DNA from: Polynucleobacter sp. | GTDB taxonomy: Bacteria > Pseudomonadota > Gammaproteobacteria > Burkholderiales > Burkholderiaceae_D | Assembly: GCA_021737945.1 (NCBI GenBank) | Contig: JAIPCX010000005.1 | Span: 62,001-126,000 of the forward strand | Direction: 5' to 3' | Length of the DNA: 64,000 nt | Shown: piece by piece, positions 13,652 through 18,239 of the stretch | Layout of the letters: every line of letters begins with the position of its first letter | Position numbering within the stretch: the stretch's first letter is position 1 | Made by a program: the position numbers and the translations under genes | The notes under the pieces: model-generated | What the model was told of the DNA's origin: nothing | What the model saw: only the letters and a program-made list of their open reading frames with translations | Database searches by the model: none

Positions 13652-13690
13652 CAAAAAAATAGCCCCGGATTCTCTGGAATCCAGGGCTAT
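13652..13690 (-). terminator. Strong intrinsic terminator on the minus strand
   Basis: ATAGCCC and GGATTC pair with GAATCC and GGGCTAT around a TCTG loop (13659-13690), and seven T residues follow on the minus strand (13652-13658). No protein gene on the minus strand ends at it. Confidence 0.8.
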
Positions 13691-13943: not shown

Positions 13944-14183
13944 ATGGATTCCACTCTTATTGAACATCACCATGAATGGCATGCCGGCGATCTCGGTTGT
14001 GGCGAGCTGGTTTTAGGTGTTCGCAAACGCTTACGAGCCCATCCAGGCCAAGTGCTCAAGTTGACTGCCTTTGATAAAGCGGCAGCGATTGATCTGCAAG
14101 CTTTTTGCAATATGACCCGTGATGAACTGCTTGCTATTGATGCAAACAGCAAAACTTTTTGGCTGCGTGGCCGAGAAAAGTAA
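13944..14183 (+). CDS. TusA-like sulfur carrier protein
   Basis: A 79-residue SirA/TusA-fold protein. The conserved cysteine that would carry a persulfide is Cys19 in AGDLGCGEL, followed by the helix and the RKRLRAHPGQVLKL strand typical of the fold; the usual Cys-Pro is Cys-Gly here. An acidic-loop/FCNMTRDELLAID end completes the domain. It is the first gene of a cluster with a DsrE-like protein and a TusA-MetE fusion, 88 bases before the former. I infer sulfur delivery to the downstream partners. It is not the canonical tRNA-thiolation TusA, which has a CP motif. Confidence 0.75.
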   Translation: MDSTLIEHHHEWHAGDLGCGELVLGVRKRLRAHPGQVLKLTAFDKAAAIDLQAFCNMTRDELLAIDANSKTFWLRGREK

Positions 14184-14271
14184 AATACCAAGATTCTTTT
14201 GCTGTCCTCATAGCAGCAAAGATAATTATGTTCTATTAGTCGTCTGAAATTTTTAACCATAAGGAATTACC

Positions 14272-14634
14272 ATGGCTGGCAAATTTTGTATCAACCTTAC
14301 CTGCAGCACCGACAATACTGATCGTGCCACCGTAGCATTTGTGGTCGCGAATGCGGCTGTCGCATCGGATAAAGACACATTGGTATTTCTATCCATCGAG
14401 GCGGTATGTCTTTCACAAAAAGGGGTCGCTGACACGATCCATGAAGAAGGCTTTGCGCCTTTGAAAGACTTGATGGCAAGCTTCGTTGAAGCCGGTGGCA
14501 AAATTTTTGTTTGCTCACCTTGCTTTAAAAAGCGTAAGTTAGATGAAAACAATCTAGTCGATGGTGCGCTGATAGTCGGTGGCGCTAAGCTGGTTGAATT
14601 CATGGCAGAAGCCTGTCCTAGCGTCAGTTTTTAA
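14272..14634 (+). CDS. DsrE/TusD-like sulfur relay protein
   Basis: A 120-residue DsrE-fold protein. It has INLTCSTDNTDRATVAF, a hydrophobic LVFLSIEAV strand, GGKIFVCSPCFKKRKL with a CSPC pair (the position of the active Cys in DsrE proteins), and LVDGALIVGGAKLVEFMAE. DsrE-fold proteins accept persulfide sulfur from TusA-type carriers. AAGGAA precedes the ATG. It lies between the TusA-like gene and the TusA-MetE fusion, 16 bases before the latter, so the three are probably one operon. The substrate is unknown. Confidence 0.8.
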   Translation: MAGKFCINLTCSTDNTDRATVAFVVANAAVASDKDTLVFLSIEAVCLSQKGVADTIHEEGFAPLKDLMASFVEAGGKIFVCSPCFKKRKLDENNLVDGALIVGGAKLVEFMAEACPSVSF

Positions 14635-14650
14635 TCCTCTGCCCTCGTCT

Positions 14651-16183
14651 ATGCACGCATCCGAATCTCATATCCACTCACCCGACATTAGTTTTGATGG
14701 CGGGGATCTGGATTGCGGCAATGGCCTACTACTGCTTATTCGTAAGCATATTGATCCACTTCCTCGTGGTGGTTTACTTGAAATCAAATCCTCTGAAATT
14801 TCGGTTGAAGAAGACCTGCCTGCATGGGCGCGACTGACTGGCAATGAATTAATCTCATGGACGAAAAAAAATCGTCAATGGAGCTTCTTGATCGCCAAAG
14901 GAAAATTCGCTGAACGATCAGCAACGGTAGCCAACCCTGTACCTGCCACGCACGACAATGGCGTAGTTAAGGTCACCATTCCGGCCAAACTTCCTCTACC
15001 CATCGCAGCTCCGACCATCGCACCGTTGTCGGTCATGGGTATTGGCAGCTGGCCGCGACCACGCTGGATGCTGCAAGCCAAACATGAACACATGGAAGGC
15101 CGACTCGATGAGATCTCGTTTCAAGCCACCGCAGATGATGCCGTTAGGCTAGCGGTCTCTGCGCAATTACGTGCTGGAGTGGATGTGGTGACCGACGGTG
15201 AACAACGGCGCGATAGCTATGCCAGTTTTGTTGGTGGCTTGCTCGACAACTGCCAACTGATTCCACTTACTGACTTACTACCTTTAGTCGATGATCCTGA
15301 AGAATTTGCGCGTGAACTAAGAGCACTGGACGTACCCGCCGAAGAAGTCAGACACCCTGCCGTATTTGGCCCACTAGGACGAAGTCGTTCACTCGCCGTA
15401 CATGAATTTGAATTCGCTCGCACTCTCAGCGACAAACCCATCAAGATCGCACTGCCTGGTCCGTATTTACTGACACGCACCATGTGGCTGGAATGTATTT
15501 CTGATCGCGCCTACAGCCATCGTGAAGAGCTGGCCACCGATATTGTTCGTGTTTTACGTGAAGAGATTGCTTACTTGCTGGCAGCGGGCACGTCGTTAAT
15601 ACAATTGGATGAGCCCGTATTATCCGAAGTCGTGTTTTCAGGGTCCGTCTCTAAGCGCAGTTTCATGTGTGGAGCATTATCTGAAAAAAATGATGTGCCA
15701 ACTGAATTAGGTTTTGCACGAGAATTAATCAACGCTGTTACCGCAGGCTTCCCTAGAGAGCGTATAGCGCTACATATGTGTCGTGGTAATTGGACGCCCG
15801 ACGAATCCGCTGCTTTATCGGGGGATTACACACCCCTGGTCGACACACTCTCTAAACTCAATGTTGGCAGCTTACTGTTGGAGTTGTGCACACCTCGCGC
15901 TGGTGAGATGGAGATATTACGCTCCATTCCAGACGAGATACGTATTGGTGTCGGCATCTGCAATCAAAAACACGCTCACATAGAAAGTTTGGATCATGTT
16001 TTAGAAAAAGGTGAACGCGCTATACAGCTCTTTGGTAAAGAACGCGTGCTGTTCACACCCGACTGCGGCTTTGCCACCTTTGCCGACAACCCATTAGCTT
16101 CCGAAAATATCGCTGAACAAAAATTAAAAATCATCACCACGGCTAGCGGCATTTTGCGCCAACGTCATAGAATTACGATTTAA
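14651..16183 (+). CDS. TusA-like domain fused to a core MetE methyltransferase
   Basis: A 510-residue two-domain protein. Residues about 16-75 are a second TusA-like sulfur carrier domain with its cysteine at 22 (GDLDCGNGLL). After a linker, residues about 125-510 are a MetE C-terminal (catalytic) barrel. All four zinc ligands known from MetE can be placed: His375 and Cys377 (LHMCRG), Glu411 (LLLELC), and Cys472 (PDCGF). The N-terminal half of full-length MetE, which binds folate polyglutamate, is absent, so this is a core-MetE type enzyme whose methyl donor and thiol acceptor are not obvious. I chose the ATG at 14651; the frame opens earlier but inside the DsrE gene. The fusion suggests that the acceptor sulfur is carrier-bound. 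Function is inferred. Confidence 0.8.
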   Translation: MHASESHIHSPDISFDGGDLDCGNGLLLLIRKHIDPLPRGGLLEIKSSEISVEEDLPAWARLTGNELISWTKKNRQWSFLIAKGKFAERSATVANPVPATHDNGVVKVTIPAKLPLPIAAPTIAPLSVMGIGSWPRPRWMLQAKHEHMEGRLDEISFQATADDAVRLAVSAQLRAGVDVVTDGEQRRDSYASFVGGLLDNCQLIPLTDLLPLVDDPEEFARELRALDVPAEEVRHPAVFGPLGRSRSLAVHEFEFARTLSDKPIKIALPGPYLLTRTMWLECISDRAYSHREELATDIVRVLREEIAYLLAAGTSLIQLDEPVLSEVVFSGSVSKRSFMCGALSEKNDVPTELGFARELINAVTAGFPRERIALHMCRGNWTPDESAALSGDYTPLVDTLSKLNVGSLLLELCTPRAGEMEILRSIPDEIRIGVGICNQKHAHIESLDHVLEKGERAIQLFGKERVLFTPDCGFATFADNPLASENIAEQKLKIITTASGILRQRHRITI

Positions 16184-16216
16184 GATTTGTTGTATCAGCT
16201 TGCGTATACTCAATTG

Positions 16217-16261
16217 ATAACCACCTTATTAATAACCACCTTATTAGTAACTACCTTACAC
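16217..16261 (+). repeat. 15-base tandem repeat before the MFS gene
   Basis: ATAACCACCTTATTA occurs twice without interruption (16217-16231, 16232-16246), followed by a diverged third unit GTAACTACCTTACAC. It lies between the MetE-like gene and the MFS gene and could reflect slippage or a regulatory array. Confidence 0.7.
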
Positions 16262-16276
16262 GCGCGCTAAAAAGCT

Positions 16277-17494
16277 ATGTTTCAACAACTGCGACAACCT
16301 GGCGTAATGCCATTGACACTGGCGGCGGCAGGTATATTGCTGATTGTTATGGGGATACGCCAATCCACAGGCTTATATCTAAGTCCGATTAATACCTCCA
16401 CCGGTTTAGGTATTGTCAGCCTAAGTCTCGCTCTGGCCATTGGACAGTTTGTGTGGGGAGCCTTCCAACCTATCGCTGGCGCGATGGCCGATCATTGGGG
16501 TCCGCGCCCTGTTTTGTTGGGTGGTGTGCTGCTGTTTGCTATTGCAACCGCTGCCACACCATTTATGACGGATGGCTTAGGATTTGCGATCACACTCGGT
16601 ATTCTGTCAGCTGCTGGCGCGGGTTCAGCCAGCTTTTCTGTACTAATGGGAGTGGTCGCTCAACGATTGCCCGCAGAAGCACGTGGAAGCGCATCGGGAG
16701 TTATTAACGCCGGTAGCTCACTCGGTCAATTTGTGATTGCACCCGTTACTCAAAAATTGATTCAGTCGTTTGGCTGGATGTCGGCCATGTGGACTATGTC
16801 CCTACTCGCGCTTGCTGCACTGCCCTTAGTCGGAAAACTAACCGATCACACCACCGCTGCACACAAACCGGCAGACTCAGCAGGTGGCTTACGACAAGCG
16901 CTGCGTGATTCTTTAAAATCACCGAGCTATGGATTACTACATGCAGGTTTTTTTACCTGTGGATTTCACATTGCATTTTTAGTGACACACCTGCCTGGTG
17001 AAGTTGACCTGTGTGGACTTCCGGCCTCTGTCGCCAGCTGGTCACTCGCCATCATTGGCCTGGCAAACATCGCGGGGAGTTTGTATATCGGTAGCTGTAT
17101 CAACCGATTTCGCAGCAAATATATTCTTTGTGTGATGTATGGTTCCAGAGCACTGCTGGTGATCTGGTATTTACTCATGCCAAAAGAAGCATGGGTCTTT
17201 TATGTATTTGCCGCGGGTCTTGGATTTACGTGGTTAGCCACCGTTCCACCCACAGCCGCTTTAGTCGGAAAACTTTTCGGGGCACGCTACCTGGCTACGC
17301 TGTTTGGTCTGACGCTGTTGTCACATCAGATCGGTGGCTTTTTAGGTGCATGGTTAGGCGGTCTGGCGATTGCTAACTATGGTGACCTAACAATGATGTG
17401 GTACGCAGACATTGCCTTAGCTGTGTTCGCTGCGATGGTGAATTTACCGATAAAAGAAGCGCCGATCACATCCGTTGTCAAAGCGACAAACTAA
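16277..17494 (+). CDS. MFS transporter linked to the TusA/DsrE/MetE cluster
   Basis: A 405-residue major facilitator protein with about twelve hydrophobic helices. It shows the loop 2-3 motif GAMADHWGPRPVLLGG and the opening typical of the monocarboxylate/oxalate-formate antiporter-like group (TGLYLSPINTSTG). It follows the MetE-like gene by 93 bases on the same strand, so it may import or export the substrate of that cluster (a small organic acid or sulfur compound). The substrate is inference only. Confidence 0.8.
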   Translation: MFQQLRQPGVMPLTLAAAGILLIVMGIRQSTGLYLSPINTSTGLGIVSLSLALAIGQFVWGAFQPIAGAMADHWGPRPVLLGGVLLFAIATAATPFMTDGLGFAITLGILSAAGAGSASFSVLMGVVAQRLPAEARGSASGVINAGSSLGQFVIAPVTQKLIQSFGWMSAMWTMSLLALAALPLVGKLTDHTTAAHKPADSAGGLRQALRDSLKSPSYGLLHAGFFTCGFHIAFLVTHLPGEVDLCGLPASVASWSLAIIGLANIAGSLYIGSCINRFRSKYILCVMYGSRALLVIWYLLMPKEAWVFYVFAAGLGFTWLATVPPTAALVGKLFGARYLATLFGLTLLSHQIGGFLGAWLGGLAIANYGDLTMMWYADIALAVFAAMVNLPIKEAPITSVVKATN

Positions 17495-17526: not shown

Positions 17527-17859
17527 TTAACGACCTAACTTAGCTTCATTAATGAATTCCACACCAGGATTACTCGGCTTAATTGAATTTTTTGCTTTGG
17601 TAATCAAGTGCTCATGCATGAGTAAAGAGAAACCGATCTTTTTTGCATACAGCCGGATATAGCTATCTAGCACCGGTGCATTGCCCCAAAAGGCATAGTA
17701 ATTTTCCTGATCAATAGCCGTGATTGCATGCTTGGGTATGCCCGTTTTGCGAACAACTTCCTCAGCCGACCAAACTAACTCCTCGCGCCTTTGTCTCAGG
17801 AGCGTTCCAATACCAACCTCCCTCTCAGCATCGGCTTGAATTAATGTTTGATTCGACAT
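17527..17859 (-). CDS. RodZ-type HTH domain protein (copy 1)
   Basis: A 110-residue protein with a cro/C1-type helix-turn-helix of the RodZ N-terminal kind: GIGTLLRQRREELVWSAEEV (start), KTGIPKHAITAIDQENYYAF, then PVLDSYIRLYAKKIG. RodZ itself would continue with a transmembrane helix and periplasmic domain; this one stops after the HTH and a short tail. The frame also opens at a GTG at 17919 that overlaps the stop of the upstream paralogue (GTGA); I prefer ATG 17859 because the extra 20 residues are hydrophobic and unlike the family. Either start leaves the pair co-transcribed. Confidence 0.6.
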   Translation of the reverse strand: MSNQTLIQADAEREVGIGTLLRQRREELVWSAEEVVRKTGIPKHAITAIDQENYYAFWGNAPVLDSYIRLYAKKIGFSLLMHEHLITKAKNSIKPSNPGVEFINEAKLGR

Positions 17860-17915
17860 GCTTGAACTAAGAGCTAGTAATGGCCAGAGAGATAAAAACG
17901 GTCTAACACCTAGAA

Positions 17916-18239
17916 TCACCTAGGCGACTTCGACTTAGTTTTTTTATCTTGCGGCGAAACCAAAAGAAATAATGGAATGACGACTTCGGTCGAGGGCATT
18001 AGCTCGGTTAATTTTGATTTACTTAGTTTGCTAAGCAAGTCCGAGTCCACGGGTATGTTTAGCTTGCGCGCGTACAGCTTGGTCATGCGCTCGATCTCTT
18101 TACTACCACCGATGAATTCTTCTAATCGCTCATTTTCGAGGGCACTGACATATTTTGTCGGCATACCTGTCATGCGTGAGACATCCTGGAGAGTCATCCC
18201 CAATTCTTCACGTTTGTTTTTAAGAACGACTCCGAGCAT
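17916..18239 (-). CDS. RodZ-type HTH domain protein (copy 2)
   Basis: A 107-residue paralogue of the downstream gene. It has LGVVLKNKREELGMTLQDVS and MTGMPTKYVSALENERLEEF (HTH), then EIERMTKLYARKLNIP, and a Lys/Ser-rich tail (KKTKSKSPR). No membrane helix is present, so it is a soluble truncated relative of RodZ or a small transcription factor. The stop overlaps the GTG that opens the frame of the next gene. Neither copy has a recognisable target nearby other than its own 360-base upstream region. Confidence 0.65.
   Translation of the reverse strand: MLGVVLKNKREELGMTLQDVSRMTGMPTKYVSALENERLEEFIGGSKEIERMTKLYARKLNIPVDSDLLSKLSKSKLTELMPSTEVVIPLFLLVSPQDKKTKSKSPR

What the first reader, a model, noticed from the sequence alone, without database searches (positions are those of the whole stretch)
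13944..17494. TusA / DsrE / TusA-MetE fusion / MFS: a possible carrier-sulfur methyl transfer system
Seen: a TusA-like protein (Cys19), a DsrE-like protein (CSPC), a TusA-like domain (Cys22) fused to a MetE catalytic barrel with all four zinc ligands (His375, Cys377, Glu411, Cys472), and an MFS permease, in one strand order with 16-93 base gaps. Known: full-length MetE needs its N-terminal half for folate; core-MetE proteins use other methyl donors; TusA and DsrE fold proteins pass persulfide sulfur. Inference: sulfur for the methyl acceptor (or the product) is held on the TusA domain. The pathway could make or use a methylated thiol such as methanethiol or methionine from a carrier-bound sulfane, with the permease moving a substrate.
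Basis: partly seen in the sequence, partly recalled or inferred. Interest (0 to 1): 0.78.

Follow-up and report, generated by a model that had tools for sequence, protein, structure and literature searches.

The report
Selenium-linked TusA–methyltransferase gene cluster
A conserved set of bacterial genes, including a sulfur-carrier domain fused to a zinc methyltransferase, keeps turning up beside and together with the genes that make selenium-containing proteins, so it is probably an undescribed route by which bacteria obtain and hand over selenium.

Summary
At 13944-17494 lie tusA, dsrE, one unbroken TusA::MetE fusion gene and an MFS gene. tusA-dsrE-tusA::metE is a conserved module; the MFS gene is not part of it. 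The fusion is a distinct, patchily distributed family (Burkholderiales, Alphaproteobacteria, Binatia, Rokubacteria, Planctomycetota, Verrucomicrobia). Its TusA cysteine and zinc residues are invariant, and the TusA domain is its most conserved part.

SelD is over cut-off in 11 of 11 fusion-bearing Alphaproteobacteria tested against 54 of 288 in a draw of the class. In 5 of 89 loci, from separate lineages, the module lies beside selD, selA, selB or yedE; one is a complete island (tusA-dsrE-p180-p520-tusA::metE-selD, then selB, selA). The slot between dsrE and the fusion repeatedly swaps between an ABC importer whose binding protein is of the ligand-unproven 'HtxB-like' class (21 of 21 read) and an undescribed pair, p180/p520.

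Preferred mechanism (inferred): the zinc domain takes methyl off a methylated selenium compound onto homocysteine; TusA/DsrE carry the selenium to SelD. Against exclusivity: 13 of 13 same-genus genomes without the fusion have SelD; 5 of 55 fusion genomes lack it.

The parts
13944..14183 (+). tusA-like carrier (79 aa), Cys19-Gly20 in place of Cys-Pro
   Evidence: PF01206 E 2e-4, under the gathering score; Cys 70 of 70 and Gly 70 of 70 in the relatives with residues there (3 of 73 gapped)
14272..14634 (+). dsrE-like carrier (120 aa) with CSPC
   Evidence: PF02635 E 1e-14; both Cys 81 of 81
14651..16183 (+). tusA::metE fusion (510 aa), one reading frame
   Evidence: AlphaFold2 pLDDT 85.5, pTM 0.83, Foldseek to MetE and to 3rpd
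14651..14914 (+). TusA domain, residues 1-88 (Cys22 codon 14714-14716)
   Evidence: PF01206; residues 12-69 86% mean pairwise identity over 71 loci
15014..16180 (+). MetE catalytic domain, residues 122-510 (Ser133, Glu184, Asp320; His375, Cys377, Glu411, Cys472)
   Evidence: PF01717 E 4e-24; zinc residues 98 of 98
16277..17494 (+). MFS permease; lineage-specific neighbour, role in the module unproven
   Evidence: PF07690; near the fusion only in the window, L032 and L033 among 89 loci

Best explanation
The module is a selenium acquisition and delivery system. Shown: a conserved tusA-dsrE-tusA::metE unit, an exchangeable importer-like cassette, and genomic linkage to selD, selA, selB and yedE. 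Inferred: a small selenium compound (methylseleninate, or another methylated selenium species) is imported and reduced to a selenol; on the fusion, zinc-activated homocysteine takes the methyl group (giving methionine) while the selenium stays as a perselenide on the TusA cysteine; TusA and DsrE (CSPC) then pass the selenium to SelD, which makes selenophosphate for selenocysteine. It would be a corrinoid-free bacterial counterpart of the archaeal SdmABC methyl-selenide system. My estimate is about 0.65 that selenium is the main cargo, and about 0.3 that the chemistry is demethylation onto homocysteine. In the window's own lineage the MFS permease may stand in for the importer.
For: SelD (TIGR00476, over cut-off) in 50 of 55 fusion-bearing genomes tested. 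In Alphaproteobacteria 11 of 11 against 54 of 288 in an even draw of the class, the centre genome taken out (Fisher 2.5e-8); counting only the strong-scoring SelD class, 10 of 11 against 19 of 288 (1.5e-10). Burkholderiales 25 of 27 against 215 of 300 (p 0.02). Selenium genes in the flanks of 5 of 89 non-duplicate fusion loci: L142 selD 127 bases downstream on the same strand, then selB and selA on the other (verified); L164 selB; L079 selD; L167 selA, followed by trxB; L129 yedE (390 bits, cut-off 200). A second DsrE-like gene is in 16 of 84 fusion loci and close to selD in 3 of 20 selD loci. The importer's binding protein has the 'HtxB-like' pocket in 21 of 21 read, which suits a small oxyanion with a non-polar group. 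Precedent: YedF joins TusA-like and DsrE-like domains and goes with SelD (PMC5322559, passages); selenium-depleted M. maripaludis has more TusAD, YedE and SdmABC transcripts, and uses methylseleninate and dimethylselenide (PMC11097638, passages).
Against: SelD is also in 13 of 13 same-genus genomes without the fusion, so the module is an accessory there. Five of 55 fusion genomes show no SelD over cut-off, one of them (G033) with module and importer complete. In six Binatia-type loci the module lies beside metY-metX-metW (verified in one), which suits sulfur or methionine, and the one Binatia SelD scanned is an oxidoreductase-SelD fusion (over the SelD cut-off, under that of the 'not SelD' model). 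In the window's genome SelD is about 51 kb from the fusion. Direct linkage to selenium genes is seen in only 5 of 89 loci; genomes within a class are not independent, and the draws may hold fusion-bearing genomes (the order draw does) and small genomes. Homocysteine and zinc residues are kept as well in 35 of 38 TusA-less homologues, so they do not prove the substrate. I know of no biochemistry on the fusion.
Confidence: 0.5

Rival explanations
1. Sulfur version: TusA/DsrE deliver sulfane sulfur to the zinc site and a methylated sulfur product (methionine or methanethiol) results; SelD co-occurrence is incidental.
For: TusA and DsrE are classical sulfur carriers (recalled); DsrE3A and TusA carry thiosulfate in Metallosphaera (PMC4175335, search listing); metY-metX-metW beside the module in six Binatia-type loci; SoxC-like genes, named by eye, near the fusion in two genus loci, with a cluster relative in one Hyphomicrobiaceae locus.
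Against: Does not explain SelD in 11 of 11 Alphaproteobacteria, or selD, selA, selB and yedE as neighbours.
Confidence: 0.2
2. A folate-free methionine synthase (a fifth core family beside MesA-D) with an unknown methyl donor; the TusA domain is structural or redox-protective.
For: MetE fold and all zinc and homocysteine residues; met genes beside it in Binatia; no folate half.
Against: MetH is present in 14 of 15 and 37 of 40 fusion genomes, so it is rarely needed as such; an invariant Cys and a TusA domain more conserved than the catalytic one do not look structural; dsrE is unexplained.
Confidence: 0.15
3. Selenium, but the other way round: the zinc domain methylates selenide or perselenide held on TusA, to detoxify or volatilise surplus selenium.
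For: Same linkage evidence; YedE has also been proposed to be an exporter (PMC5322559, passage).
Against: Importer-type ABC cassette with a periplasmic-type binding protein; tight linkage to Sec biosynthesis genes in L142.
Confidence: 0.12
4. Reduced-phosphorus uptake linked to the module through the HtxB-like importer.
For: HtxB is the closest solved relative of the binding protein (280 bits).
Against: The three-gene importer is in 20 of 84 loci only and is replaced at the same place by an unrelated pair; nothing else in the module is known to handle phosphorus.
Confidence: 0.03

Closest known systems
YedE/YedF selenium-linked pair (Lin et al. 2015, PMC5322559; Zhang et al. 2008, PMC2432076; passages of both seen)
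   Same: TusA-like plus DsrE-like carriers, the DsrE with a CxxC motif; association with SelD; a transporter alongside; yedE itself in one locus (L129).
   Different: Here TusA and DsrE are separate genes, TusA has CG instead of CPXP, and a second TusA is fused to a MetE-type zinc domain that YedEF lacks; the NCBIfam scan of tusA and dsrE listed no YedF match up to E 0.1.
SdmABC methyl-selenide methyltransferases of Methanococcus (PMC11097638, passages seen)
   Same: A methyltransferase system linked to freeing selenium from dimethylselenide; its transcripts rise with those of TusAD and YedE under selenium depletion.
   Different: SdmABC has a corrinoid protein and a coenzyme M methyltransferase; here the catalytic domain is MetE-type, no corrinoid protein was recognised in the module, and the hosts are bacteria, nearly all with MetH.
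MesD and other core methionine synthases (Price et al. 2021, PMC7857596, abstract and passages seen)
   Same: MetE catalytic barrel without the folate half, zinc HCEC and homocysteine Ser/Glu/Asp kept.
   Different: 33% identity to the genome's MesD-like gene over 195 residues, 77 bits to the MesD structure 3rpd, separate clade, TusA domain present, no MesX match in 23 genomes (control did not ring).
HtxB and the 'HtxB-like' or 'hybrid' binding proteins (PMC5700983, PMC6629693; passages seen)
   Same: All 21 cassette binding proteins read carry Ser128/His158/Phe or Tyr176 with Trp52, Tyr97, Thr129, Ser130, Arg178, Asp206, positions placed by me from the alignment.
   Different: PMC6629693 suggests that HtxB-like proteins can bind phosphite; the context found here suggests a selenium (or sulfur) oxyanion.

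Membership tests
Canonical TusA sulfurtransferase | Cys-Pro (CPXP) motif around the carrier cysteine (as printed for SirA-like domains in PMC5322559) | tested here: not met
   CG in 95 of 95 fusion TusA domains (3 of 98 rows gapped) and 70 of 70 stand-alone ones (3 of 73 gapped); the genome's ordinary TusA has KCPLP
Canonical TusA sulfurtransferase | Match to the family model | tested here: inconclusive
   PF01206 E 2e-4 (tusA) and 2e-6 (fusion), under the gathering score; fusion over it and tusA under it; NF001423 far under cut-off
Core (folate-free) methionine synthase | Zinc ligands HCEC and homocysteine residues Ser/Glu/Asp | tested here: met
   98 of 98, and 97 of 97 for Asp320; but all seven kept in 35 of 38 TusA-less homologues too
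MesD family | At least 560 bits (about 72% identity) to MesD, and MesX (DUF1852) in the genome (PMC7857596) | tested here: not met
   77 bits to the MesD structure 3rpd; MesX 0 of 23 genomes (control silent)
MetE (5-methyl-THF dependent) | N-terminal folate-binding half | tested here: not met
   A TusA domain stands there; the only Meth_synt_1 hit is weak and inside the catalytic part
YedF (TIGR03527) | SirA-like CPXP domain fused to a DsrE-like domain with CGXC | tested here: not met
   Separate genes, CG motif, CSPC; no YedF match listed in the NCBIfam scan
SelD-dependent selenium utilisation genes | Co-occurrence with SelD beyond the background | tested here: met
   Alphaproteobacteria 11 of 11 against 54 of 288, not corrected for phylogeny; but 13 of 13 non-fusion genomes of the window's genus also have SelD
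SelD-dependent selenium utilisation genes | Physical clustering with selA, selB, selD or yedE | tested here: met
SelD-dependent selenium utilisation genes | Altered selenium incorporation on deletion | not testable with these tools
   needs bench work
HtxB-like binding protein (importer cassette) | N128 to Ser, F158 to His, M176 to Tyr/Phe against HtxB (PMC6629693) | tested here: met
   21 of 21 read

The most novel reading that the evidence does not exclude
TusA::MetE is a new enzyme, a corrinoid-free methyl-selenide:homocysteine methyltransferase that leaves selenium as a perselenide on its own carrier domain. With the HtxB-like ABC importer, or the p180/p520 pair in its place, it forms the first dedicated bacterial uptake-to-SelD route for methylated selenium.
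Probability: 0.27. Interest if true: 0.92.

Novelty: new variant of a known kind. Interest (0 to 1): 0.77.

Why it matters
How cells import selenium and hand it, rather than toxic free selenide, to SelD is open: a 2022 review says no high-affinity selenium transport system has been identified (PMC9312934, passage), and a 2024 paper says no dedicated selenium transporter is known in any organism (PMC11097638, passage). This module offers concrete candidates for carrier, enzyme and importer. It also gives the ligand-unproven HtxB-like binding proteins a genomic context, and makes methylated selenium, a common form in soil and water (recalled), a testable nutrient for bacteria.

Tried and rejected
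Rejected or led nowhere: (1) MFS permease as an essential part: near the fusion only in the window and two relatives among 89 loci. (2) Riboswitch control: no riboswitch at Rfam's gathering score in the window or in 17 relatives. (3) Sole methionine synthase: MetH in 14 of 15 and 37 of 40 fusion genomes. (4) MesX partner: none in 23 genomes, control silent. (5) Homocysteine and zinc residues as proof of substrate: kept in 35 of 38 TusA-less homologues. (6) Docking of TusA on the zinc site: no coordinates of the model are given, so not tested. (7) p180: no PDB match and no convincing Pfam match (best E 0.0065, in one of 11 members). p520: no Pfam match in one member, only a weak fold match (TM 0.18/0.28) to the archaeal S-layer DUF1608 domain on a poor model (pLDDT 62). 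(8) Viral contigs: no relative found; plasmids: three Paracoccus records hold at least 80% of the query. (9) Literature: the listings of ten searches of the held library showed no paper on a TusA-MetE fusion or linking this module to selenium; only open-licence PMC papers are held, and I read passages of seven papers only.
Full report
What is there. The window holds tusA (13944-14183), dsrE (14272-14634), a single open frame 14651-16183 coding a TusA domain fused to a MetE-type catalytic domain, and an MFS gene (16277-17494), all on the + strand with gaps of 88, 16 and 93 bases. Pfam finds DsrE, Meth_synt_2 and MFS_1 clearly and TusA weakly. A model of the fusion (60-row alignment, pLDDT 85.5, pTM 0.83) matches T. 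maritima MetE and the MesD structure 3rpd. The genome has one further core MetE, which by eye resembles 3rpd as printed, an ordinary TusA with KCPLP and a MetH.

It is a family. The fusion is in 8 of 21 genomes of the genus (one copy, G012, has an internal TAG). In an even draw of 300 genomes of the order, 9 have it over nearly its whole length and 3 more as damaged or cut copies. In a draw of 398 of the phylum only the window's genome has it at E 1e-35. Both scan patterns lie in the TusA domain, so this set selects for that domain. The whole-protein searches do not; in them, matches outside the fusion family are TusA-less and mostly 24 to 37% identical (40% over one 70-residue piece), the best-scoring one 33%. 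Named hosts include Duganella, Massilia, Burkholderia, Nitrospirillum, Azospirillum, Bosea, Reyranella, and MAGs of Binatia, Rokubacteria, Planctomycetota and Verrucomicrobia. In a tree with 38 TusA-less homologues the 17 fusions sampled form one group with full support, though the tree has long branches and weak deep forks.

Conservation. In 98 aligned fusions (ten of them duplicate records) the TusA cysteine is kept in 95 of 95 rows with a residue there (3 frames lack that part), the zinc ligands in 98 of 98, Ser133 and Glu184 in 98 of 98, Asp320 in 97 of 97. As a control, all seven zinc and homocysteine residues are kept in 35 of 38 TusA-less homologues (two lack one at a frame end, one has Ala for the Glu ligand), so they do not identify the substrate. 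Over 71 loci, mean pairwise identity is 86% for TusA residues 12-69, 71% for the MetE domain, 75% for DsrE and 56% for the stand-alone TusA; this set was picked largely by TusA patterns. The motif is Cys-Gly throughout, unlike ordinary TusA.

Gene order. Of 89 non-duplicate loci, 84 have dsrE and the fusion on one strand, and 76 of these have tusA directly upstream of dsrE. Between dsrE and the fusion lie nothing recognised (45), a three-gene PhnD/PhnE/PhnC-type ABC importer (20), a pair p180+p520 (17), p180 alone by this search (1) or a transglutaminase-like gene (1); in 5 loci no dsrE was found. With a wider upstream window, 25 of 84 fusions have importer genes, 19 the pair (or part of it) and none both. 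On a quick tree the labels need at least 18 changes; they are clustered (shuffles need 36), but well-supported branches alone force 7 to 10 changes for each label. Two unrelated cassettes exchanging repeatedly at one position suggests that they do the same job for the module.

The importer. The binding protein of the Duganella locus is closest to HtxB (280 bits; other PhnD/PtxB structures 60-76 bits). The 21 that could be read carry the pocket residues that PMC6629693 names for an 'HtxB-like' subfamily whose ligand is unproven (passages; the 'hybrid' class of PMC5700983, passages): Ser128, His158, Phe or Tyr176, with Trp52, Tyr97, Thr129, Ser130, Arg178 and Asp206. p180 is a small, by its composition membrane-bound protein with four invariant cysteines in 11 sequences. 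p520 is exported-looking, with a weak fold match to the archaeal S-layer domain DUF1608.

Selenium. Three kinds of evidence appeared while following the neighbours. First, gene neighbours. The Paracoccus ferrooxidans locus has a SufS-type desulfurase on the other strand, the module with p180/p520, then a true selA (565 bits, cut-off 268) and trxB. A planctomycete locus has yedE. A Bradyrhizobiaceae genome has tusA-dsrE-p180-p520-tusA::metE-selD on one strand (selD 127 bases after the fusion), followed on the other strand by a GcvH-like gene, a second dsrE, a lipoate-ligase-like gene, selB and selA. A betaproteobacterial MAG has the module, then on the other strand a second dsrE, a GcvH-like gene and selB. 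Genome G070 has selD about 2.3 kb away on the other strand. That is 5 of 89 loci in 1.39 Mb of sequence. A rough Poisson estimate for the four loci with selA, selB or selD gives 0.0003 to 0.003; the expected counts of 0.3 and 0.6 put into it are my own assumption.

Second, co-occurrence. SelD over the curated cut-off is in 50 of 55 fusion-bearing genomes: 15 from the genus and order searches and 40 of the 80 named loci, the 40 chosen for taxonomic spread before SelD was looked at. Among Alphaproteobacteria it is 11 of 11 against 54 of 288 in an even draw of the class with the centre genome taken out (Fisher 2.5e-8). Most of those 54 are weaker matches in long frames; counting only the strong class (my reading of E-values and frame lengths in the table) it is 10 of 11 against 19 of 288 (1.5e-10). 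In Burkholderiales, where SelD is common, it is 25 of 27 against 215 of 300, a draw that includes some fusion genomes (p 0.02). Class and order of the named loci were taken from their record titles. These tests do not correct for phylogeny or genome size. Third, in 11 of 20 selD neighbourhoods fetched from fusion-bearing genomes selA or selB lies within the stretch, in 7 formate dehydrogenase sequence (some cut at the end), and in 3 the second dsrE; in two, a transglutaminase-like gene adjoins selD, distantly related to the kind found in 7 of 89 fusion loci.

Results against. All 13 genus members without the fusion have SelD. Five of 55 fusion genomes have none over cut-off (G003, G033, G336, G339, G344); G003 is in 530 contigs. 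In six Binatia-type loci (one labelled Desulfurellaceae) the module lies divergent to metY-metX-metW (verified in one; the others by clustering) and lacks a tusA upstream; the SelD of one, scanned, is an oxidoreductase-SelD fusion, over the SelD cut-off and under that of the 'not SelD' model. The window itself gave no match to the selA, selB, selD and yedE queries; its genome's SelD is about 51 kb upstream on the same contig.

Mechanism. MetH is present in 14 of 15 and 37 of 40 fusion genomes, so a further methionine synthase is rarely needed; an invariant carrier cysteine beside a zinc methyltransferase suggests that the released or accepted chalcogen matters. In Methanococcus, selenium depletion raises transcripts of TusAD, YedE and SdmABC, a corrinoid methyltransferase system for methyl-selenides, and the cells use methylseleninate and dimethylselenide (PMC11097638, passages). 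By analogy I propose that TusA::MetE transfers the methyl group of a methylated selenium compound to homocysteine and keeps selenium on Cys22, to be passed through DsrE to SelD. The importer pocket (two or three oxygens, a non-polar group under a tryptophan) would suit methylseleninate; a title in that paper's reference list says methylseleninate is a substrate of mammalian thioredoxin reductase, and trxB follows selA in Paracoccus. Every chemical step here is inferred.

Comparison. The module resembles YedE/YedF (TusA-like and DsrE-like domains, SelD-linked; PMC5322559, PMC2432076, passages) but is not YedF: separate genes, CG not CPXP, no model match. It resembles SdmABC in proposed role, not in parts. 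It is not MesD or MetE by the tests listed. I rate it a new variant of a known kind: known carrier and selenium logic with a new enzyme architecture and a new importer linkage.

Noticed in passing
L142:10696-12360, L164:10205-11148, L191:8547-10052: A GcvH-like lipoyl protein and a second DsrE-like gene, with a lipoate-ligase-like gene in L142 and L191, sit beside selD or selB, recalling the lipoate-binding sulfur oxidation system (recalled); lipoyl-bound selenium is a possible further step.
   Followed up: partly
L131:5908-7978 and relatives (alignments A3, A5): Orphan pair p180 (four invariant Cys, hydrophobic) and p520 (exported-looking, mostly beta, C-terminal hydrophobic helix, weak S-layer DUF1608 fold match); found together in 17 of the 18 loci with p180 between dsrE and the fusion, never with the ABC importer.
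   Followed up: partly
L081:8609-9733; L038:1343-2749; L083: Damaged copies of the fusion: an in-frame internal loss of about 130 residues (G223), an internal TAG (G012) and scattered fragments (G057).
   Followed up: no
G000:C47:89256-89777 (L002, L048): The window's genome has a MesD-like core methionine synthase about 12 kb from its MetH, but no MesX was found (control silent); what feeds it is unknown.
   Followed up: no
L134, L136, L139, L143, L144, L146: In these Binatia-type loci the dsrE-fusion pair is divergent to metY-metX-metW, without a separate tusA upstream.
   Followed up: partly
L174:8547-9605: An ArsP_1-family permease gene next to selD in Nitrospirillum.
   Followed up: no
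window 13659-13690: Terminator-like hairpin (14 pairs, minus strand) between the cupin gene and the module.
   Followed up: no
window 17527-18239: Two adjacent RodZ-like helix-turn-helix genes on the minus strand just downstream of the MFS gene, about 30% alike as judged from cross-matches to their L032 counterparts.
   Followed up: no
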